This document shows positions 21,275 through 44,715 of a DNA stretch of 64,000 nucleotides, piece by piece (position 1 is the stretch's first letter; each line of letters begins with the position of its first letter). Source of the DNA: Collibacillus ludicampi (GTDB taxonomy: Bacteria > Bacillota > Bacilli > Tumebacillales > BOQE01); contig NZ_BOQE01000001.1 in assembly GCF_023705585.1 (NCBI RefSeq), positions 1,825,001 to 1,889,000 of the forward strand. Reading direction: 5' to 3'. The notes beneath the pieces were generated by a model. The model saw nothing but the letters and a program-made list of their open reading frames with translations. It was not told the origin of the DNA and did no database searches. The position numbers and the translations under genes are program-made.

Positions 21275-22234
21275 TTGTTAGAAGAGTTACGTGTAGCCCA
21301 ATATCGATTTGTAGTGGAAGCAGGGGAGCAAGGAATCGAATTGCCTATATTCAAAACAGCCGCTTTGCGCGGAGGATTTGGACAGGTCTTTAAGTCACTC
21401 GTTTGTACATATCCGAGTCTTGAGTGTAAACATTGTTCTCTGTCAGAAACATGTCCATACCCTTATGTTTTTGAAACACGACCGAACCAAGATGCGGAAA
21501 TTCAGCAATCTTTCGATAATATCCCAAGACCTTACATCCTGCGTGCAAGCCTCGACCGGCAAACGCGGTTTCAACCGGGTGAGACGTTTGTGTTTGATTT
21601 GGTACTGATCGGTCAAGCCATTACATACGCTCCTTACTTTATTTATGCATTCGATCGTTTGCTTGAAACCGGAATTGGTTACGGAAGGAGACCTGGAAAA
21701 CTTCTTAGAGTAGAAGGAATAGATTTGGATACGCATCTTTCCTTTTGCATCTTTGACGGTCATACCAAGCGGCTGATCGGCAAAGAGTTCGTTTATTCGG
21801 GTCAAAGCATTATGGAAAAAGCGAAAAAACTCCGTCCCCAAAAGGTGACTCTGTATTTCCAAACTCCTTTTCGGACGAAATGGCAAGGCCGTTATACAGA
21901 TCGGACAGATTTTCATATCATCATACGTTCTCTGCTAAGGAGATTATCAAGTATTTTCTACTTTCATCATCAAATAAAACTTAACATTGATTTTAGCCAT
22001 ATCATTCGGAAAGCAGAAGCTATTCAAATAGTTTCGGATAAAACACGATGGATGGATTTTTCACGTTTTTCCGCTCGTCAGGATACAAAGATGAACCTTG
22101 GGGGATTCGTCGGATGGGCAACGTATGAAGGGGACTTGGAACCATTTGTCCCTCTTTTGCTGGCAGGGGAACTCTTGCATGCTTCAAAACAAGCTGTGTT
22201 TGGTCTTGGGCAGATTCGATGTGTGTGGGGTTAG
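21275..22234 (+). CDS. cas6: CRISPR pre-crRNA endoribonuclease Cas6
   Basis: 319 residues. It should cut the repeat transcript at the base of the repeat hairpin, giving crRNAs with an 8-base 5' tag. The first RAMP domain begins RVAQYRFVVEAGEQGIELP, with the conserved AALRGGFGQVF; a cysteine cluster C-x6-C-x2-C-x5-C (CTYPSLECKHCSLSETC) suggests zinc binding. The second RAMP domain ends in the glycine-rich KQAVFGLGQIRC that contacts RNA. Start TTG 21275 follows AGGAAAGGATGA. First gene of the I-D operon. Confidence 0.88.
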   Translation: MLEELRVAQYRFVVEAGEQGIELPIFKTAALRGGFGQVFKSLVCTYPSLECKHCSLSETCPYPYVFETRPNQDAEIQQSFDNIPRPYILRASLDRQTRFQPGETFVFDLVLIGQAITYAPYFIYAFDRLLETGIGYGRRPGKLLRVEGIDLDTHLSFCIFDGHTKRLIGKEFVYSGQSIMEKAKKLRPQKVTLYFQTPFRTKWQGRYTDRTDFHIIIRSLLRRLSSIFYFHHQIKLNIDFSHIIRKAEAIQIVSDKTRWMDFSRFSARQDTKMNLGGFVGWATYEGDLEPFVPLLLAGELLHASKQAVFGLGQIRCVWG

Positions 22235-23346: not shown

Positions 23347-26160
23347 TTGGAACGTGTGAGGGTTTCCGTGACGAATCAACCGCCTGTCGAAGCAACCGGC
23401 GTAACGGGGGATGAAATCGATCTCTTCCAAAGGTATATAGGCGATACGCGAAGGTTCCCCTTTGAACACCAGGCTCGAGCATTCCAAATCATCCGCGAAG
23501 GGAAAGAGTGTGTGCTTGTTGCAGGGACTGCGGCGGGAAAAACATTATCGGTTGTGATTCCTTTGCTTTTGCGGGTTCAAAAAGGACTGTCACGAAAAAT
23601 CTTGTTTCTTTACCCCGCATTGGCACTGCTGGAGGACCAGCTACAGACGATACGCAGAGTGGCTCAGTCCATCGGTTATGAGAACGCGATCGGTCATATC
23701 TACGGGGGAATGACCAGAAGAGAGCTTACGGAGCAATTAACGAAGCCGATCCTAGTGGCGACACCGGATGCGATCTACTGGTTTGTCGAAAAAAACACAA
23801 AGTATGGCCCCTTGTTTTTGTACAGCCTTTGTCAAGTGGACGATATCGTGATCGATGAAGCACATATCTTGTCAGGTCTCATGGGGGAAAATCTGAAAGC
23901 GTTTCTGGACCGACTCAACGTTCTTCGCACTCAGTTTTTACATAAAAAACGAATACGGGTTCACGTCTTGACGGCTACACCAACAGAAGTCGTTGACAAG
24001 TTGTCCAAAGGTGAGAAGGTGTATGGCCGATCCAAGGTGGGAGAAGTAATTTTTGAAGCGGAGTTGTTAAGTAAGGGAAACACTGAATCATGGTTGCAAT
24101 TGATTCAGCGGGAAGCAAATGGTGATTTTCGCCGTATGATTGTCGTTGTCAATTCCGCCAAACGAGCGCATCAATTATTTTTTGCTTGCAAGGAAGAACA
24201 GCAGAATAGCAAGAGGATCATGCCTTTTCTCAGACAGTTTGGTTGGATACGTTTGCAGGATGTCGGACGGGTTCTTTATACACAATATCCGCATCTTCTA
24301 TCCACTGTTGAAGGGTGGATGCGTGAACAGACAGAGCATATTCTTATTCCTTTACAAAATTTGTATGATGATGACAATCTTCTTGTTTCGGCGGGCACCT
24401 TGTCGGAGTGGGGGGAGTCATGGACGGAGCGGTGGAAGAAGAGAATTTCTAGTGAAATAAAAGAATTTTTTCAAAAAGAGAGTAAGAGGAAGCTGGAATA
24501 TACCTTAAACGGGAAATGGAGAAACCATCAAGCACTCATGCGATTCGGGCGTCTTACATATCAAGACTATCAGCGAACGATCGACCAATATGCGGAACAT
24601 CTGATTAGGGCATGGGAAGCGAATATTCACACGCTTGTGGAAGAATCGGACGAAGCCGTATTGACAAAGAGAGGTTTACAGGAATTCTTCCGAACGTTAT
24701 CACTTGATCCTCTCTTTCACGGGATTGCTGATGACCTGAAGAACGATGTATTTCGCCAGCGAATCCCGTTACGTCATGTGAACACTCCTTTCGAAAAACT
24801 TCTTACTCTGCCTCTTCCCTCGATACCGATTCGTGAAGTGGAAGAAGTGTGTATAAAGCTGGGGATTTCTTTCGAATCTGTTTTTCAGGCATGTATGAAA
24901 CAGATTCAATTGAAATATATCGGATTCTTGCAAGGGACGGATATTCCGGTCATTCTCTATACAGGCAGTATGACCAAGAGAGCGAGAAATGGTTTGATAG
25001 AGGCTTTTCAGTCTGACGAGATCAGACAGGCGATCCTCATATCCACGAGTGCGGTTGAGGTGGGGGTGGATTTTGATGCGGATCTGTTACTTTCGGAGGA
25101 ATGTACTTCGAACTCTTTTCTGCAACGATTTGGAAGGGTCGGGAGAAGAGGTGGCAATTTCCAGCGTGTGGTTCTCTTGACACAAGACGGTGGGTTATAT
25201 GGAAAATTCCGCAGGGCATTTGAAAACAAGGATCGACTAACGAGAGAAGAATTTTCGGAGGAAATTCGTTCCCTCCTTCCGGAACGCAAACATTTGAATT
25301 CTTCTCCTTATATCCACCTTCTGCACTCCCATGTGACGAGAAGATTGGGGGAGGTCGGCCGGTTAATCGCACCCGATCAACCAGAAGTGGAACGATTGTT
25401 GCTAGAAAAATGCGGGTTTCGCTACGGTCTGCGCAGTACACTTCCCCAAGTCGAGTTACTTGATGAAGGTATCGGTAAAGATCCGTTTCAGATTTTGTCC
25501 TATATTCCGAAAGAACAATTGCGAACACATTATGATTCATTCACAGTTGCAAAAGCGGATGTTTTTTTCGATCAGCTGATCTATATGAAGCGAATGTATC
25601 GTATACTGATCAATCAAGATGCGACATTGAAACAGATGAAAGTTATGTTGTACTGGCACAAGGGTCAATTGCACGGGATTGATCCGACCATTCTCATGCA
25701 AGCCGCTACACGTGGACAGCCTTGCTTCTATCAAAATACGGTCCATGCGGTTTTAAATCGTCCTAACGCTTTGAAACTGGCGTTGAGCGAAACACATATG
25801 GCGAAATTTACTCAGGTTTATCCTTATTTACAAGCGATTCAAGAGAATCCAAAACTCAATCGGTATATTCTCGGGATCGGAGATATTATTCTTCAACGTG
25901 GAAGCGGACATGATTTGCACGACCTGATCGATCAAGAGGATGACCCGATCATATTAAGAAACCAAATGTTCCTGTATTGTCCTTATGAAGCGGGGCGGGA
26001 TAGCAAGGATACAATTTCGTGGGAAGGGTTCGAACAAGAGTTGCTCGTTTTCCGTAATGAGGATTATCCGGAGTTCAACCAGCCGTTCGGGCATATTTTG
26101 ATTGACCGTGTGGCGGGAGCATGTGTGGAAATGTACAGAAGGATGGTAGAGACTGCATGA
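23347..26160 (+). CDS. cas3': Type I-D Cas3' helicase
   Basis: 937 residues. SF2 DExH-box helicase that is recruited to the R-loop and reels in target DNA. Walker A is GTAAGKT (60-66), Walker B DEAH (170-173), motif III TATPTE; the C-terminal RecA domain has SAVEVGVDFDADLLL and QRFGRVGRRGG. No HD nuclease motif is present in the chain, as is normal for I-D. TTG start following AAGGGGTG. The stop overlaps the ATG of the HD gene (ATGA), showing translational coupling. Confidence 0.93.
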   Translation: MERVRVSVTNQPPVEATGVTGDEIDLFQRYIGDTRRFPFEHQARAFQIIREGKECVLVAGTAAGKTLSVVIPLLLRVQKGLSRKILFLYPALALLEDQLQTIRRVAQSIGYENAIGHIYGGMTRRELTEQLTKPILVATPDAIYWFVEKNTKYGPLFLYSLCQVDDIVIDEAHILSGLMGENLKAFLDRLNVLRTQFLHKKRIRVHVLTATPTEVVDKLSKGEKVYGRSKVGEVIFEAELLSKGNTESWLQLIQREANGDFRRMIVVVNSAKRAHQLFFACKEEQQNSKRIMPFLRQFGWIRLQDVGRVLYTQYPHLLSTVEGWMREQTEHILIPLQNLYDDDNLLVSAGTLSEWGESWTERWKKRISSEIKEFFQKESKRKLEYTLNGKWRNHQALMRFGRLTYQDYQRTIDQYAEHLIRAWEANIHTLVEESDEAVLTKRGLQEFFRTLSLDPLFHGIADDLKNDVFRQRIPLRHVNTPFEKLLTLPLPSIPIREVEEVCIKLGISFESVFQACMKQIQLKYIGFLQGTDIPVILYTGSMTKRARNGLIEAFQSDEIRQAILISTSAVEVGVDFDADLLLSEECTSNSFLQRFGRVGRRGGNFQRVVLLTQDGGLYGKFRRAFENKDRLTREEFSEEIRSLLPERKHLNSSPYIHLLHSHVTRRLGEVGRLIAPDQPEVERLLLEKCGFRYGLRSTLPQVELLDEGIGKDPFQILSYIPKEQLRTHYDSFTVAKADVFFDQLIYMKRMYRILINQDATLKQMKVMLYWHKGQLHGIDPTILMQAATRGQPCFYQNTVHAVLNRPNALKLALSETHMAKFTQVYPYLQAIQENPKLNRYILGIGDIILQRGSGHDLHDLIDQEDDPIILRNQMFLYCPYEAGRDSKDTISWEGFEQELLVFRNEDYPEFNQPFGHILIDRVAGACVEMYRRMVETA

Positions 26161-26870
26161 ATCTAGTGGATAGGATGAATAAGGCTGTTGCCAAATCTTT
26201 ACCCAGAGTCAGCCTTTTTGAGCATAGTTTCGGTGTCCTTCAGATCGTCGATCATATGATACGGCAAACGGAAGGATACTCGAATGATCAGGCGTCTGTT
26301 CTGCGGCTCGGTGCATTTCTGCACGATATCGGGAAATTGAACGCAGACTTTCAAGAAATGCTGCTTTCATCGGACAAAAGCCAGATGAAACGGGTCAAGC
26401 ATGAAGCTCAAACATACCAGTTTTATGAAGATGTCATGAACGAAAGAAATGATGTGGTTGAATGGCTTGCGGAAGCCCTGAACTGTAGGGTCATCAATCC
26501 AAAGGATTGGGGAGATGTATTTGCGTTCGCTGTTACCCATCACGGTTTGTTTTACAGTTCCCTGGAAGAAGGAAAGTGGCACGCACGGCGAGAATGGACG
26601 CGGATGAGTCCGAAAGAGGAACGGCGTATCACATTGGCCGATCTGATGATCCGCTATTATCCGCTAGGAGGAGCAGTCATTTTTGCAGACATGCTTCATT
26701 CGGAACAATTGTCTAGCGGACGGGACAACGTCTCCGAAATCAAGGGAATGAAACATCCAAGTGACTGGCTGCTCTATGTCCGCCGGAGAAAAGAGGAGTT
26801 ATTCCACGTAAAAGAAATCGATCACGAGACGAGGATCCCCTTGGATCTTTTGGAACTGTTAATCGCATGA
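26157..26870 (+). CDS. cas3'': Stand-alone HD nuclease (Cas3''-type)
   Basis: 237 residues. HD-superfamily metal nuclease. Ligands in order: His23 (FEHSFG), His56-Asp57 (FLHDIGK), His82 (KHEAQ), His128-His129 (THHG) and Asp178 (FADML), the Cas3''/Cas10 HD arrangement. In described I-D systems the HD domain is the N-terminus of Cas10d; here it is a separate gene between cas3' and cas10d. It starts inside the cas3' stop (ATGA) and ends 13 bases before cas10d. Confidence 0.88.
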   Translation: MNLVDRMNKAVAKSLPRVSLFEHSFGVLQIVDHMIRQTEGYSNDQASVLRLGAFLHDIGKLNADFQEMLLSSDKSQMKRVKHEAQTYQFYEDVMNERNDVVEWLAEALNCRVINPKDWGDVFAFAVTHHGLFYSSLEEGKWHARREWTRMSPKEERRITLADLMIRYYPLGGAVIFADMLHSEQLSSGRDNVSEIKGMKHPSDWLLYVRRRKEELFHVKEIDHETRIPLDLLELLIA

Positions 26871-26883
26871 GGGGGTGACATTC

Positions 26884-29481
26884 ATGACGATCAATGAGCA
26901 AGTGCAGCAATTTCTTCTCCGCCATCATTGTCCGATTGATGCAAACGAGATACTGGAGAACGTCAAGCGGGGAGTGCCGTATCAAAAATTACCTTGTCCG
27001 TCAGGAGACTTGTATCTGATTCAACTCTATCACCCGGTCATCCTGAGGAGAGAGATATTCCTGGGCAACGTGTTATTTAATGCATATCTTGGTCTGACGA
27101 TGAAACACGCGTTGGACAACCATGAAAAGACGGATGCGCTTCCGCTCTTTAACGACCTTCATTCTTACTATTTTCTTGTTCATACTACTGTGTCATTAGC
27201 TGAATTAATGGAACACGTATACAAGGCATGGTATGACGGATTGGAGGATCTGTATTTTTCCGATCCATCGCCTGAGGAGATGTATACATATGCGCAGAGG
27301 GGATACTTTGGACGCTTCTCGGGGATGTTTGAAAATTATTTCAAAAGTAACATTCAACCGTTTCCTTTAATGATTATACCACTCGCTTACGTGAAGAAGT
27401 TGGAACGCGGGGTTCGCTCTTACCTGCTGGAGAAACTGCATTCAGGAACCTGGTCTGAGGGGATTGCTAATTTTACTGCCAATTTTAGTTTCTTCTATGG
27501 GCAAACAAGCGGCGGAGCGGGAGATGTACAAAGCTGTCCAAACTTTTTAAGAAGGCTTGTTTCGGAATATAGAGTTATTGAACCTGATGAGATGATCGCT
27601 GCTTTTCATTTACCACACGAATCGGATTTCAATAAACAGGAAGTAAAAGATGCCATACACTCAAAGTTATTCGCCAAAGGGAAACAACCTTCGTATGATC
27701 CTGAGGCTTTAAAAACGGTTTTTCAGAAGGCCCTGGATCATTTCGCACAATCGATTGAGTCAACTCAAGATCATCTTGGGGAGTCTGAATGGCTGTGCCG
27801 TTACCATCGTGAAAAGGGGGTTTTTTTGGATGAATCACCTGAGACGCTTTTACGTGAATTGACAAGAGGAGTGACCATTGCAGGGCGGACTGTTTTTGAT
27901 ATAGAGGAAAGTCGCGAAATCGCTGATCAGGAAACTTGTTTACTATGTGGGTGTTATCCTGCAAAACTCGAAGGGGCTACGATACTATCATCCGATTCGT
28001 TCAGTAAGTTTCATAATCATTCCATTAATCGAAAGTCAAACGAAAAGCGAATTTGCAGGAATTGTGCCTTATATGCGTATCTGAATGTTAAGTTGTCAGG
28101 TTCGAAAAGTGCTGGTATCGGTCAGATTCCACGCCAAGGAAACATCGTCTTTCATTATGGCGATTATTTGGATGGGGAATTGGACGAGGTCATCAAGAAA
28201 TTCGAGGAAAAATACCGTAGCTTATTCCGAAGCCAGACCGAAGAGAAAAATGGAGAAAATCCTTCAGAAGAAGTTCCATTTGCTTTTTTGTCGGAACTCG
28301 ATTCTGAGCACATCGAAGAAATACAAGAAGAAAACTTGCGTTCCATGTTCAGGGGCAACGATAATGGCCAAGCGCTTGTTTTGCCGATACATTTTGGACG
28401 GCAACAGTTGATCATTTTCGTTTTTCCAGGACTGAATGATGATATTCAAAAACGGTTGGATGTAAATTGGTATTCCACATGTCAAATTTTAAGCTGGTTA
28501 ACTTCCGTTGGAGGCAAGGAAGGCCCCTACTATTACCTGTCTTTGCCCCGGCCGGAACAGGTGCTTAAAAATCGCTCCATTCTCGTGATCAATGATCAGG
28601 AATACGATACAGATACAGCGATTCATTTGCATAATCTGTATCTGCAGGTCGTTCCTGAATTGTCTAAATCTCGTGCGAAAGATGGATTTAAGTATCAGAT
28701 GATAATGGCGGAGCGAGTACAGAGGGAACCATTAGGGAGATTCAGTGATGCCATACGTAATTGGATGCAGGAAAAGAAATTTTCAGCGAAAAGACAAGAT
28801 ACGTTTTTCGCAGTCTATGGAAAGATCCACGATATTCTCGATATGGAGGGGTTGTACATGTCGGAGGAAAAGAAGATCCTCGATGAGTTTTCCAACCGAA
28901 TGTTCTTTACATTAGACATGCTCGGAATCCTCACAGAATATCCCGGGGATTTGACAAATCGCCCAAATGCGTATGAAAAATGGCCCCGAGAATTAGTGGG
29001 TCCTTTGAAGAAAAAAGGAGCCAACATGCGCTTTGTCATGGAACAGTGGAAAAACCGGGTAATCCGCGCCGCTTTGGCTTCAGCTACTGAACGGAGAATC
29101 AGCGAGTCAGAACGTCAATCGTACATCGAGCAACTCCACAAATTTGAAGCGTGGTGCTGGCAGTATGAAGATACGATTGTGCGTCATGCGAACCATTTGC
29201 TAACAAGTTTGCTGGCAAGAGCGTTTGTTTATCTTTATACGGTTCGAGCGCTGAGCGAATATTATTTGCAATTACATAAAGATCATCCGGAAATGTTGTC
29301 GAAGGAAGCAGTCCTGCAGAGATTTGAGGAAGATGTCGAGCAGCGTTATCAAGAATTGAAAAAAGAGGGGCGCATTGATCCTCTTCTCAAGGAATGTTCC
29401 ATGCACCATCTTATGAAATATATCAACTATTACAAAAAGAAAATATCCAATCAAATCACAAATGGAGGCGAAAAAGCATGA
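26884..29481 (+). CDS. cas10d: Type I-D large subunit Cas10d (Csc3), lacking an HD domain
   Basis: 865 residues. The large subunit of the I-D Cascade, thought to recognise the PAM. The N-terminal 300 residues have no HD motif. A zinc-ribbon-like cysteine set lies near residues 351-394 (ETCLLCGCYP, later RICRNCALYA). No GGDD palm signature is seen, so no cyclic oligoadenylate synthesis is expected. ATG 26884 follows GAGGGGGTGA. Its end overlaps csc2 by ATGA. Assignment rests on the cysteine motif, length and position next to csc2 and csc1. Confidence 0.82.
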   Translation: MTINEQVQQFLLRHHCPIDANEILENVKRGVPYQKLPCPSGDLYLIQLYHPVILRREIFLGNVLFNAYLGLTMKHALDNHEKTDALPLFNDLHSYYFLVHTTVSLAELMEHVYKAWYDGLEDLYFSDPSPEEMYTYAQRGYFGRFSGMFENYFKSNIQPFPLMIIPLAYVKKLERGVRSYLLEKLHSGTWSEGIANFTANFSFFYGQTSGGAGDVQSCPNFLRRLVSEYRVIEPDEMIAAFHLPHESDFNKQEVKDAIHSKLFAKGKQPSYDPEALKTVFQKALDHFAQSIESTQDHLGESEWLCRYHREKGVFLDESPETLLRELTRGVTIAGRTVFDIEESREIADQETCLLCGCYPAKLEGATILSSDSFSKFHNHSINRKSNEKRICRNCALYAYLNVKLSGSKSAGIGQIPRQGNIVFHYGDYLDGELDEVIKKFEEKYRSLFRSQTEEKNGENPSEEVPFAFLSELDSEHIEEIQEENLRSMFRGNDNGQALVLPIHFGRQQLIIFVFPGLNDDIQKRLDVNWYSTCQILSWLTSVGGKEGPYYYLSLPRPEQVLKNRSILVINDQEYDTDTAIHLHNLYLQVVPELSKSRAKDGFKYQMIMAERVQREPLGRFSDAIRNWMQEKKFSAKRQDTFFAVYGKIHDILDMEGLYMSEEKKILDEFSNRMFFTLDMLGILTEYPGDLTNRPNAYEKWPRELVGPLKKKGANMRFVMEQWKNRVIRAALASATERRISESERQSYIEQLHKFEAWCWQYEDTIVRHANHLLTSLLARAFVYLYTVRALSEYYLQLHKDHPEMLSKEAVLQRFEEDVEQRYQELKKEGRIDPLLKECSMHHLMKYINYYKKKISNQITNGGEKA

Positions 29482-30437
29482 GTTTGGAACAAATCCGTGA
29501 ATGGTTGAATCCGATCGAAACAGTCTTGAAACTGGAAGGCGGGAAAAAGAAGAACGAAAAAATGTTGCCGCCGGTTATGAAACGAAACGTAGTAACGATC
29601 ATCGGCGTCAAGAGAACAGTGGGGCGTTTTCTTCCTGTCTCCCATGAAGGATATTCCAATGAAACGTATGTAGATAAAGTTGAGTTGCTGAATCGTGAGA
29701 GGGCGGAATTCATTGCCCGCAAATTAAAAGGAATCGAACGACGGGCCCATATGTCCCTGTACAGAGAATTAATCGAGAAAACGGTAGAGAAAGAATGGAA
29801 CTTGGCGTTTGAAGAATTGTACGGAAAAGCGTGCACCATTCCCTCCGGACTCTGTGTTACTTGCTGGAATTGCTCCTTATTTGGGGCATTGGAAGCAGGC
29901 AAGGGCGGAACATTTTCACGAATCCGTTATTTTGACACTTGGTCATTCGAATCTACGGATGAATGTGTAGCCAGCATCCAGTCCGGAGAAGGCATGGGGA
30001 TTGGCAACACTGTCAGCGAAGATCTGCGAGAGGAAAGAGGGGCTGATTCCTATCATTTATATGAATACGTAAAGCCTGGAACTCATTTTCCGTTTATTAC
30101 AATCATTGAAAGCCCGACATCTCTTGATTTGGCAGGATACATTCAAGCGGTTCGCATGGCGGATCTTCATGGTTATGGGAAATATAGCGCTAACCATGGG
30201 AAGTTTGAGACCACCTTCCTTTCCGTCGCGCCCGGTATGCCGCGCTTCTCCATCTTGACGATGTTAGAGAATGTGGAGGGCGATGTTATCAAAGGATTGG
30301 AAAGAAAATTCACAGACGGCACATTCGCTTTTGACGCTCCTGAACAGTCTGTGATTCTCGGTCATAACGAGATTCTTTCCATTGGTCATGAGCTAGAAAA
30401 AGAATTTGCGGATTACGTAAAAATCGTACGTCAATAG
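29478..30437 (+). CDS. csc2: Type I-D backbone subunit Csc2 (Cas7)
   Basis: 319 residues. It polymerises along the crRNA spacer to form the I-D Cascade backbone. It begins MSLEQIREWLNPIETVLKLE; a cysteine group CVTCWNC near residue 130 could hold zinc, and GMPRFSILTMLENVEGD near the end fits the RAMP fold of the Csc2 family. ATG 29478 follows AATGGAGGCG and overlaps the cas10d stop. Confidence 0.9.
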   Translation: MSLEQIREWLNPIETVLKLEGGKKKNEKMLPPVMKRNVVTIIGVKRTVGRFLPVSHEGYSNETYVDKVELLNRERAEFIARKLKGIERRAHMSLYRELIEKTVEKEWNLAFEELYGKACTIPSGLCVTCWNCSLFGALEAGKGGTFSRIRYFDTWSFESTDECVASIQSGEGMGIGNTVSEDLREERGADSYHLYEYVKPGTHFPFITIIESPTSLDLAGYIQAVRMADLHGYGKYSANHGKFETTFLSVAPGMPRFSILTMLENVEGDVIKGLERKFTDGTFAFDAPEQSVILGHNEILSIGHELEKEFADYVKIVRQ

Positions 30438-30449
30438 GGAGGAAGCCAG

Positions 30450-31217
30450 GTGTATGCGCGTGCCTTACTTCTCCGGAACTGTGGACGATATACCTTGGTT
30501 CGCTCCGACTTCGGGTCGGATTATATAACGTGTCGGTTTGTTAGCGAAGAATCTTTGTACGCAGGGTTAACGAGAGAACAGGCAAGAAAGTTCGGAAGGA
30601 TCGAACCGAACATGGGGGCCGATTTTGCAAAAGCGTACGATATATCAGCGTATCCCGTTTGGTTTACTCCAGGAGTATTTATTCATTCTCTGGACAAAGA
30701 ATTTGATGTTGTTCACACAGGACGGTTGAAATATAACGTGATTGAAGAAGCCCGCCCTTCAACAAGTGAGAGTATAGTGTATGACAAGAAGGGCGAATGG
30801 AAGAGTGGTTCGCGAAACAATTTAGCTACATTTGGATCCATTGAGTCGGTTTTGCCCAACCAATTGCTTTATACGATTGGAATCAGTGAGGACAAAGAAT
30901 TGTTATCTCGTTATCAAAGGCAAGATGTTTATCTCATGGGAAAAAAGCGTACGATGTTTGAAGTTGTCGATGTATCGGAAGTGACTTCATTGGAAGAGGA
31001 AGAGTTTCAAGAAACCGTTCCTGTTCAAGTGCAAATGAATCAACTCAACCAATACGCCTCGTATACGATCCTAGATGTGAACGCTCGGTATTTTCTGGTC
31101 GAAGGAACGTCATTGAAATGTTGGCGTGTAAATACTCACCTCCTGGGTAAACCTTTTACAAAGTATCTTCCAGGTGTTTTTGTTGAGAGGGCGGAGGAAT
31201 TGTTTTCGAAAAAATAA
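30450..31217 (+). CDS. csc1: Type I-D Csc1 (Cas5)
   Basis: 255 residues. Cas5-type RAMP that caps the 5' tag of the crRNA in the I-D Cascade. It begins MYARALLLRNCGRYTLVRSD and includes PNMGADFAKAYDISAYPVWFTPG and LPNQLLYTIGIS. GTG 30450 follows GGGAGGAAG, 12 bases after csc2. It is the last recognisable cas gene: no cas1, cas2 or cas4 follows within the window. Confidence 0.85.
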   Translation: MYARALLLRNCGRYTLVRSDFGSDYITCRFVSEESLYAGLTREQARKFGRIEPNMGADFAKAYDISAYPVWFTPGVFIHSLDKEFDVVHTGRLKYNVIEEARPSTSESIVYDKKGEWKSGSRNNLATFGSIESVLPNQLLYTIGISEDKELLSRYQRQDVYLMGKKRTMFEVVDVSEVTSLEEEEFQETVPVQVQMNQLNQYASYTILDVNARYFLVEGTSLKCWRVNTHLLGKPFTKYLPGVFVERAEELFSKK

Positions 31218-31771: not shown

Positions 31772-32000
31772 TATAATGAAGGGGACGTCCCATACTTTTT
31801 ATAGGGGAGTACTGGAAATACTTATCAAATGGTCATGACTCATGAAATTACGGACTTCTGGATGGTCAATTTGTCATTTTCGAGTCAACTCCCATTTTTC
31901 CAACAAAAAACCAATCCTCGAAAAGTACACCTTTCCGAACAAAAAGCCGAATCCGCGAATACCGCGCCTGGCTTAAATTCTCGTAGTGCCCGCAAATGCG
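31772..32000 (+). promoter_or_regulatory. Leader of CRISPR array 1
   Basis: Contains a -10-like TATAAT (31772-31777), a palindrome GGGACGTCCC (31782-31791), and the inverted repeat TTTTCGAG (31877-31884) / CTCGAAAA (31917-31924) separated by 32 bases. The last 14 bases before the first repeat are TGCCCGCAAATGCG. The inverted repeat and the 14-mer recur at identical distances before array 2. No good -35 is seen. Confidence 0.65.
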
Positions 32001-32677
32001 GTAACATTCATGACCCGAGTAACTAGGGGACTGAAAGAAAATACTGGCGATGAGAAGCGTGTACGGTGCGCAAGGTAACATTCATGACCCGAGTAACTAG
32101 GGGACTGAAAGTCAACGTCCAATAAAAGAGCACCACAAAGAGAAGCGCGTAACATTCATGACCCGAGTAACTAGGGGACTGAAAGTAAACAAAAGTCAGT
32201 CGAAGCCATTCAAAATTGATAAGTAACATTCATGACCCGAGTAACTAGGGGACTGAAAGTCGGGAGATCCAAACTACGTTGCACGACAACGATGAGTAAC
32301 ATTCATGACCCGAGTAACTAGGGGACTGAAAGAGCCCAGAACAATAAAATTAAAAAGCAACTTAGAATGTAACATTCATGACCCGAGTAACTAGGGGACT
32401 GAAAGTCGCCATTCCACAAAAGCATCCGAGCATAGAAGGTGCGTAACATTGATGACCCGAGTAACTAGGGGACTGAAAGCTCAGACACAACCCGGGGACA
32501 CTCATTGATTCGTTATTGTAACATTGATGACCCGAGTAACTAGGGGACTGAAAGTCGATGAGAAGAGTGAGGAGCATATCGTCCTCACTCCCGTAACATT
32601 GATGACCCGAGTAACTAGGGGACTGAAAGGTCAGTTCCTGTATCTCACGCTTAAACAGATCCGCATGTAACATTGAT
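32001..32677 (+). CRISPR. CRISPR array 1 (9 full repeats, 9 spacers, truncated last repeat)
   Basis: 37-base repeats start at 32001, 32075, 32149, 32223, 32296, 32369, 32443, 32518 and 32593, with an 11-base remnant at 32667. Spacers are 36-38 bases. The repeat begins GTAACATT, has the stem CCC-g-AG / CT-a-GGG with loop TAA, and ends in the tag ACTGAAAG. Repeats 1-6 read ATTCATG, repeats 7-9 and the remnant ATTGATG. The leader is at the left and the degenerate end at the right, so transcription runs rightward, 780 bases after csc1. Confidence 0.98.
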
Positions 32678-33296
32678 AAACAGGGAATCTAGAAATCCGG
32701 TAGAAATAACAGGTTACGATGTGAATGGTCTGTTGAAGGAAGAAATACTTACAAAAACCCTAAAATCCCGAACACTAAGGCTTCTTCCTGGGTCACGAAT
32801 GCCTGATCTTGGCATGCCAAACTCCCGGTTTGAGGTTGTTTTTCTTAAACCGGTATTTCTTTTTCAGATTTTTAACAATTAGCAGCGCTTGTTTTTATAT
32901 AGAATGCCAGACTTCTGCTTCGCGCTCGATCCAGCCCTTGTACCGTTTTCTCTTCCGCTAAGGCATGATCGCAACGAGTGCATCTTTTTTGGATCTTTCG
33001 GTATTTACCTAAGTTGGATGCGCTTTGGCTTTATTCTTGATCTGGACTTTGTCCATTGTTCTCTCTTTTTCGCAGATTTTCCGGAACATGGGTTTGTCTT
33101 TTCCAAGCGGGGATCGGTTCCAATTCCAGTTTCCGTAGTGAAATGAGCGGAACGTTGCTTTGTGGATACGTGCCGAGTTAGTCTGGCGTTCCGTATGTTT
33201 TGTCTTCATACAGTGCGAATCCTAATTCTGTATCTTTTATGTAATCACTTATTATCGGAATATATGGTTATTTAAGGGGTGCAAAAATTTTTGTGT
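32678..33296. other. Region after array 1 with no recognisable gene
   Basis: About 600 bases. Short open frames exist on both strands but none has a ribosome site together with a recognisable protein. It may hold decayed genes. Confidence 0.4.
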
Positions 33297-44210: not shown

Positions 44211-44335
44211 GTTTTCGAGGCAAAAGGCACTTTTTTTACAAAAGAATAATCCTCGAAAACAGCCAGATAAATCATTTGCATTGCCTTCCATTAATCCCTT
44301 GTCCCACCTGCAGTTTTTCGCTGCCCGCAAATGCG
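44211..44335 (+). promoter_or_regulatory. Leader of CRISPR array 2
   Basis: GTTTTCGAGG (44211-44220) and CCTCGAAAAC (44251-44260) form a perfect 10-bp inverted repeat; 76 bases separate the shared CTCGAAAA core from the first repeat, and the last 14 bases are TGCCCGCAAATGCG. All three spacings equal those before array 1. Confidence 0.7.
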
Positions 44336-44715
44336 GTAACATTGATGACCCGAGAATCTAGGGGACTGAAAGTGATCAAGCCGTTCAAAACTCGCTTCAT
44401 CTAGTCCTGTAACATTGATGACCCGAGAATCTAGGGGACTGAAAGTTTCGTAGAAAATTCATCCATTTCATCTCCCCCCTTGTAACATTGATGACCCGAG
44501 AATCTAGGGGACTGAAAGGAGGGAACTTAGACAAGCCCAAGAAATAGCAAAAGGGTAACATTGATGACCCGAGAATCTAGGGGACTGAAAGAAACGCTTC
44601 AGCGTATACACATCTGTCTGCTATGTCGTAACATTGATGACCCGAGAATCTAGGGGACTGAAAGTTTTTTGAACTTGAACTTGATTAAAAGGATTCGCCA
44701 TGTAACGTTGATGAC
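44336..44715 (+). CRISPR. CRISPR array 2 (5 full repeats, 5 spacers, truncated last repeat)
   Basis: 37-base repeats start at 44336, 44409, 44482, 44555 and 44628, with a 14-base degenerate remnant GTAACGTTGATGAC at 44702. Spacers are 36-37 bases. The repeat is that of array 1 (ATTGATG form) except that the hairpin loop is AAT instead of TAA; stem and ACTGAAAG tag are unchanged, so the same Cas6 should process both. Same orientation as array 1. Confidence 0.98.

What the first reader, a model, noticed from the sequence alone, without database searches (positions are those of the whole stretch)
23347..31217. Type I-D CRISPR operon with the HD nuclease as a separate gene
In described I-D systems Cas10d carries the HD nuclease at its N-terminus. 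Here Cas10d (26884-29481) has no HD motif in its first 300 residues, and a complete HD protein (His23, His56-Asp57, His82, His128-129, Asp178) is encoded between cas3' and cas10d with an ATGA overlap to cas3'. This could be a fission of Cas10d or a Cas3'' acquired separately, and it makes the nuclease a free subunit that may be recruited on demand.
Basis: partly seen in the sequence, partly recalled or inferred. Interest (0 to 1): 0.75.

Follow-up and report, generated by a model that had tools for sequence, protein, structure and literature searches.

The report
Type I-D-like CRISPR with separate nuclease
This bacterium carries a relative of the type I-D CRISPR defence system in which the DNA-cutting enzyme is its own gene, paired with the DNA-unwinding enzyme instead of built into the target-recognition protein; the layout recurs in bacteria and archaea, so one can ask how the cutting part came to be attached in the textbook version.

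Summary
The operon runs cas6, WYL regulator, cas3', HD, cas10d, cas7, cas5, followed by CRISPR arrays. The HD gene starts at ATG 26157 inside the cas3' stop (ATGA) and carries every metal ligand listed. Cas10d has no HD domain: canonical HD profiles score at most 4 bits on this lineage, against 27-195 bits on held-out canonical Cas10d, and its predicted N-terminus is alpha/beta.

It is not a local accident. All 16 loci with both genes in view (four bacterial phyla and archaea) have a free HD gene directly after cas3' and an HD-less large subunit. In two of them the cas3'-HD pair sits kilobases from cas10d, so HD travels with the helicase. The helicase is sister to canonical I-D Cas3' (100/99).

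The free HD keeps the two-metal ligand set of Cas3, which canonical Cas10d HD domains lack. This argues against fission of a modern Cas10d, but the HD tree alone cannot reject that kinship (AU p = 0.33).

Best reading: a sister variant of I-D that uses a split Cas3'/Cas3'' pair, as type I-A does. Profile libraries already hold its large subunit as 'Cas10_Id'; I found no open paper describing the free nuclease. The host lacks cas1.

The parts
21275..22234 (+). cas6, crRNA-processing endoribonuclease
   Evidence: Pfam CRISPR_Cas6 66.4 bits; PADLOC PDLC01477 320.6 bits
22293..23294 (+). HTH-WYL transcriptional regulator of the cas operon
   Evidence: Pfam WYL, WCX and HTH_11
23347..26160 (+). cas3', stand-alone DEAD-family helicase without an HD domain
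   Evidence: sister to canonical I-D Cas3' with 100/99 support
26157..26870 (+). Stand-alone HD nuclease, Cas3''-type (237 aa); start overlaps the cas3' stop (ATGA)
   Evidence: TIGR01596 Cas3'' 44.3 bits, over its cut-off of 43.45; two-metal ligand set invariant; model pLDDT 89
26884..29481 (+). cas10d-like large subunit without an HD domain, C-terminally fused to a Cas11 small-subunit domain
   Evidence: PADLOC Cas10_Id 229.6 bits and Cas11d 81 bits; fold match to S. islandicus Cas10d 6thh; no HD
28858..29481 (+). Predicted internally started cas11d: ATG with GGAGG upstream, at the Cas10/Cas11 junction
   Evidence: the same motif sits at the junction in the two other fused relatives, L031 and L027
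29481..30437 (+). cas7 (Csc2-type backbone)
   Evidence: Pfam Csc2 over its cut-off; profile-profile 97.5% with canonical Csc2
30450..31217 (+). cas5 (Csc1-like)
   Evidence: PADLOC Cas5d of I-D 175.7 bits; weak profile match to canonical Csc1, 67%
32001..32700 (+). CRISPR array 1: 9 repeats of 37 nt plus a degenerate terminal repeat
44336..44664 (+). CRISPR array 2: 5 repeats of nearly the same 37-nt unit
31877..31924 (+). Leader-like element upstream of array 1, repeated at 44212-44259 upstream of array 2
   Evidence: 75% identical over 48 nt (family D4)

Best explanation
This is a CRISPR interference system sister to canonical type I-D. Its crRNA-guided complex (HD-less Cas10d, Cas11d, Cas7 of the Csc2 family, Cas5, Cas6) finds dsDNA. 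The cutting is done by a separate Cas3''-type two-metal HD nuclease that works with the separately encoded Cas3' helicase, much as in type I-A. Most likely steps: crRNA-guided R-loop formation (inferred), docking of Cas3' and Cas3'' as a pair at Cas10d (inferred), nicking of the displaced strand by Cas3'' and degradation as Cas3' unwinds (inferred). Because the nuclease is not tied to the large subunit, the pair could in principle leave the complex and degrade DNA processively, which canonical I-D is thought unable to do. Shown here: gene layout, its conservation, the ligand set, absence of HD in Cas10d, helicase kinship.
For: A free HD gene overlaps or abuts cas3' in 16 of 16 loci, with gaps of -37 to +14 nt. 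In L032 the cas3'-HD pair starts 5.5 kb after the end of cas10d, and in L052 a type III-B operon separates HD from cas10d by 8.0 kb, so HD follows the helicase. All nuclease ligands are invariant. The second-metal His columns are H in 15/15 free HDs, 40-41/41 Cas3 and 2/2 Cas3'', but in only 3, 7 and 5 of 15 canonical Cas10d; PMC7689449 reports these ligands absent from S. islandicus Cas10d. Helicases of the variant and of canonical I-D are sisters, 100/99. Cas7 matches Csc2 at 97.5%. The only convincing PDB match of the Cas10d model is 6thh Cas10d, prob 0.99. Two I-A loci also have a separate HD gene next to cas3'.
Against: No biochemistry and no complex model. Homology of the large subunit to canonical Cas10d by sequence profile is weak, confined to the zinc finger (25.6%), and the structure match is modest (E 2.5e-3, TM 0.28). 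Fold search with the HD model ranks SAMHD1-type HD proteins above Cas3, all with weak E-values. Pairing of HD with Cas3' is inferred from gene order only. The host lacks cas1 and no protospacers were found, so current activity is unproven.
Confidence: 0.78

Rival explanations
1. Fission: the HD domain of a canonical Cas10d was split off and became a free gene in this lineage.
For: The AU test does not reject a clade of free HD plus Cas10d HD, p = 0.33. In most loci the HD gene lies directly before cas10d, overlapping or within 59 nt.
Against: The free HD has the complete two-metal set, whose second-metal columns are not conserved in Cas10d HDs (PMC7689449). Its profile scores Cas3 HDs up to 46 bits but Cas10d HDs at most 16 bits. 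It tracks cas3', not cas10d, in L032 and L052.
Confidence: 0.15
2. The HD protein is a stable subunit of the effector complex, bound to Cas10d where the fused domain would sit, so that the system works exactly like canonical I-D except for a missing peptide bond.
For: In I-A, Cas3'' is reported as part of the helical assembly (PMC11127173). HD and cas10d genes are adjacent and often overlap in 14 of 16 loci.
Against: The cas3'-HD unit is kept when separated from cas10d (L032, L052).
Confidence: 0.3
3. The HD protein is an accessory nuclease, and the system silences targets mainly by binding or by Cas7 cleavage.
For: Canonical Cas7d is itself reported to have nuclease activity (PMC10212523).
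Against: Universal presence, invariant active site and overlap with cas3' are those of a core enzyme; no other HD-bearing interference protein is in the operon.
Confidence: 0.07

Closest known systems
Canonical type I-D (Synechocystis pSYSA, Sulfolobus islandicus)
   Same: Separate Cas3', Csc2-type Cas7, Csc1-like Cas5, Cas10d fold with zinc finger, Cas11d at the C-terminus with an internal start, WYL regulator nearby; helicases are sisters
   Different: The HD nuclease is a free gene with two-metal ligands instead of a one-metal domain fused to Cas10d; window proteins fall below NCBI's I-D cut-offs (Csc2 34.5/38, Cas3' 63.7/69.1, no Csc3 or Csc1 hit)
Type I-A (cas3' and cas3'' as separate genes)
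   Same: Split helicase and HD nuclease; cas3' and cas3'' adjacent in the two loci read
   Different: Helicase not on the I-A/other-Cas3 side of the tree; large subunit and Cas7 are I-D type
PADLOC models Cas10_Id PDLC01506 and Cas11d PDLC01499
   Same: These models match this lineage; Thermacetogenium phaeum (L012) scores 1330 bits, so it is likely a seed. The large subunit without HD was thus already filed under I-D
   Different: The library entry says nothing of the free HD gene or of the mechanism
I-D CASTs with inactivated Cas10d and no Cas3d
   Same: HD activity missing from Cas10d
   Different: There nuclease activity and Cas3 are lost (PMC10293859); here both are present with intact active sites

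Membership tests
Type I-D | HD nuclease fused to the N-terminus of Cas10d | tested here: not met
   separate gene 26157-26870
Type I-D | Cas10d/Csc3 large subunit | tested here: inconclusive
   PADLOC Cas10_Id 229.6 bits and 6thh as only good PDB fold match, but no hit of NCBIfam's I-D Cas10d model and only a zinc-finger match by profile
Type I-D | Csc2-family Cas7 | tested here: met
   Pfam Csc2 35.1 over 25.5; hhalign 97.5%; NCBIfam just below its cut-off
Type I-D | Stand-alone Cas3' of the I-D clade | tested here: met
   Sister group of 15 canonical I-D Cas3', 100/99
Type I-D | Cas11d encoded within or beside cas10d | tested here: met
   Internal SD and ATG at the junction in all three fused genes; a separate gene in the other relatives; translation itself not shown
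Type I-D | GTN-type PAM and dsDNA interference | not testable with these tools
   No protospacers found
Type I-A | Separate cas3' and cas3'' | tested here: met
Type I-A | I-A helicase kinship and Cas8a-type large subunit | tested here: not met
   Helicase on the I-D side; large subunit hits Cas10_Id only
Cas3'' HD nuclease | TIGR01596 match and conserved metal ligands | tested here: met
   44.3 bits over 43.45 for the window; best family in all ten relatives scanned, though below cut-off there; ligands invariant

The most novel reading that the evidence does not exclude
This lineage keeps the layout that existed before the HD nuclease was fused to Cas10d: a free two-metal Cas3'' beside a free Cas3'. 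Canonical I-D would then be the derived form, having fused the nuclease and lost the second metal site. That would reverse the published scheme in which the HD moved from Cas10d onto the helicase.
Probability: 0.4. Interest if true: 0.72.

Novelty: new variant of a known kind. Interest (0 to 1): 0.56.

Why it matters
Fusion of HD to Cas10d is taken as the hallmark of I-D and underlies two ideas: that the nuclease must stay with the complex (PMC9123187), and that type I arose when HD moved from Cas10d to the helicase (PMC10212523). In 2011 Makarova and colleagues left open whether the I-D HD came from cas3 or from an ancestral stand-alone HD (PMC3150331). A widespread sister lineage with a free HD lets both ideas be tested by direct comparison. 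In practice, a nuclease that can be added to or left out of an I-D-like complex is convenient for in vitro work.

Tried and rejected
Viral and plasmid collections hold no relative of this Cas10d or Cas7. The first array has no match in phages or plasmids, so no PAM or target could be inferred. A sample of 399 genomes of the class holds no other copy, and 7 of 398 phylum genomes match the Cas10_Id model, one of them a weak match without cas genes. The HD tree was built to settle fission against acquisition and cannot: the deep forks are unresolved and the AU test is not significant. A second AU test (free HD with I-A Cas3'') did not finish. The short standalone HD ORFs in the Bacillota scan (L116-L120) showed no cas neighbours and were dropped.

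Full report
What is there. The window holds one CRISPR-Cas interference operon: cas6 (21275-22234), a WYL regulator, cas3' (23347-26160), an HD gene, cas10d (26884-29481), cas7 and cas5 (to 31217), followed by a CRISPR array at about 32001-32700 and a second array of nearly the same 37-nt repeat at 44336-44664 with a similar leader. The HD start is best placed at ATG 26157, inside the cas3' stop codon.

Cas10d has no HD domain. A profile of canonical Cas10d HD domains, built leaving each one out, scores 27-195 bits on the canonical protein left out and no more than 4.3 bits on any protein of this lineage. Pfam and NCBIfam find nothing HD-like in it. The AlphaFold model (pLDDT 85) starts with an alpha/beta domain; the only good PDB fold match is Cas10d of S. 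islandicus, 6thh (probability 0.99, E 2.5e-3).

It is a lineage. A scan with the Cas7 alignment found 18 loci, and whole-genome searches added Thermacetogenium phaeum (identified by its 2,939,057-base chromosome, PMC3551663) and others. Hosts are Bacillota, Chloroflexota, Rubrobacter, a Syntrophaceae member, a Poribacteria MAG, Methanothrix and another archaeon. In all 16 loci with both genes in view, HD overlaps or directly follows cas3' (-37 to +14 nt). In one of these (L028) the HD frame is broken once, possibly an assembly error. In L032 the cas3'-HD pair lies after cas5, cas1, cas2 and cas4; in L052 a complete cmr1-cmr6 operon lies between HD and cas10d. So the nuclease gene follows the helicase gene.

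Kind of nuclease. The free HD proteins match Cas3'' (TIGR01596) best, the window's over the curated cut-off. In a 77-row alignment the three histidines of the second metal site (His82, His128, His129 here) are H in 15/15 free HDs, in 40-41 of 41 fused Cas3 and in 2/2 I-A Cas3'', but only in 3, 7 and 5 of 15 canonical Cas10d. Manav et al. report that these ligands are missing from Cas10d and suggest one metal there (PMC7689449). The free-HD profile scores Cas3 HDs up to 46 bits and Cas10d HDs up to 16.

Kinship. Variant and canonical I-D helicases fall on one side of a 100/99 branch, each a clade, apart from 18 other Cas3 and two I-A Cas3'. Cas7 is a clear Csc2 relative (97.5%), Cas5 a weaker Csc1 relative, and the large subunit shares only a zinc finger by profile. 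The HD tree leaves the place of free HDs open: a clade with Cas10d HDs is 2 log units worse, p 0.33. Since all other Cas3 in the helicase tree have HD either free or on the helicase, an unfused state as ancestral is the simpler reading, but this is inference and the tree is unrooted.

Cas11. Most relatives have cas11 as its own gene. In the three with a fused cas10-cas11 (window, L031, L027), a strong Shine-Dalgarno (GGAGG or AGGAGG) and an in-frame ATG sit at the junction (window 28858), so Cas11d is probably also made alone, as described for canonical I-D (PMC10212523).

Mechanism. In canonical I-D the fused HD is thought to be ordered on target recognition, to serve as landing pad for Cas3', and to keep helicase and complex together (PMC9123187). 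Here the likely equivalent is a Cas3'-Cas3'' pair that docks on Cas10d after R-loop formation, as in I-A (PMC11127173). Whether HD waits in the complex or comes with Cas3' is open; gene order favours the second.

Known or new. PADLOC already files this large subunit as Cas10_Id and its Cas11 as Cas11d, so curators had seen members; the 2020 classification paper is not held here. In the open papers searched and the passages read, including the 2025 classification update, I found the HD-Cas10d fusion stated as general for I-D and no description of the free form. I therefore call it a new variant of a known kind, with the caution that it may be in a supplement.

Activity. The genome (99.9% complete) has no cas1, so the arrays can probably not grow. 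Genes and active sites look intact, but no target was found.

Noticed in passing
L052:4263-13064 (G782, Chloroflexota; the cas10d end is L034): A complete type III-B operon cmr1-cmr6 sits between the cas3'-HD pair and cas10d-cas11-cas7-cas5, making one I-D-like/III-B gene run on one strand.
   Followed up: yes
L023:1324-7263 and L053 (Methanosaeta/Methanothrix, G781): At the same place upstream of cas10d lies a different type III set with a Csx11-type Cas10 and Cmr4; cas3'-HD is on another contig end. The same genome also has a canonical I-D locus (L129).
   Followed up: partly
whole genome G000: No cas1 in a 99.9% complete genome: an interference-only CRISPR system with short arrays.
   Followed up: partly
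L122 and L129 (archaeal canonical Cas10d): The HD motif reads HELHK instead of HD..K, an Asp-to-Glu change in the catalytic pair of canonical Cas10d.
   Followed up: no
L123:7814-8260, L124:6897-7358, L129:5170-5613: Some archaeal canonical I-D loci have a separate small gene of about 150 aa right after cas10d, likely a stand-alone Cas11d.
   Followed up: no
L028:6441-7208: The free HD gene is broken into two ORFs in this MAG; sequencing error or loss of the nuclease.
   Followed up: no
window:33297-33881: A short GGDEF diguanylate cyclase ORF (194 aa) lies near array 1 on the opposite strand.
   Followed up: no
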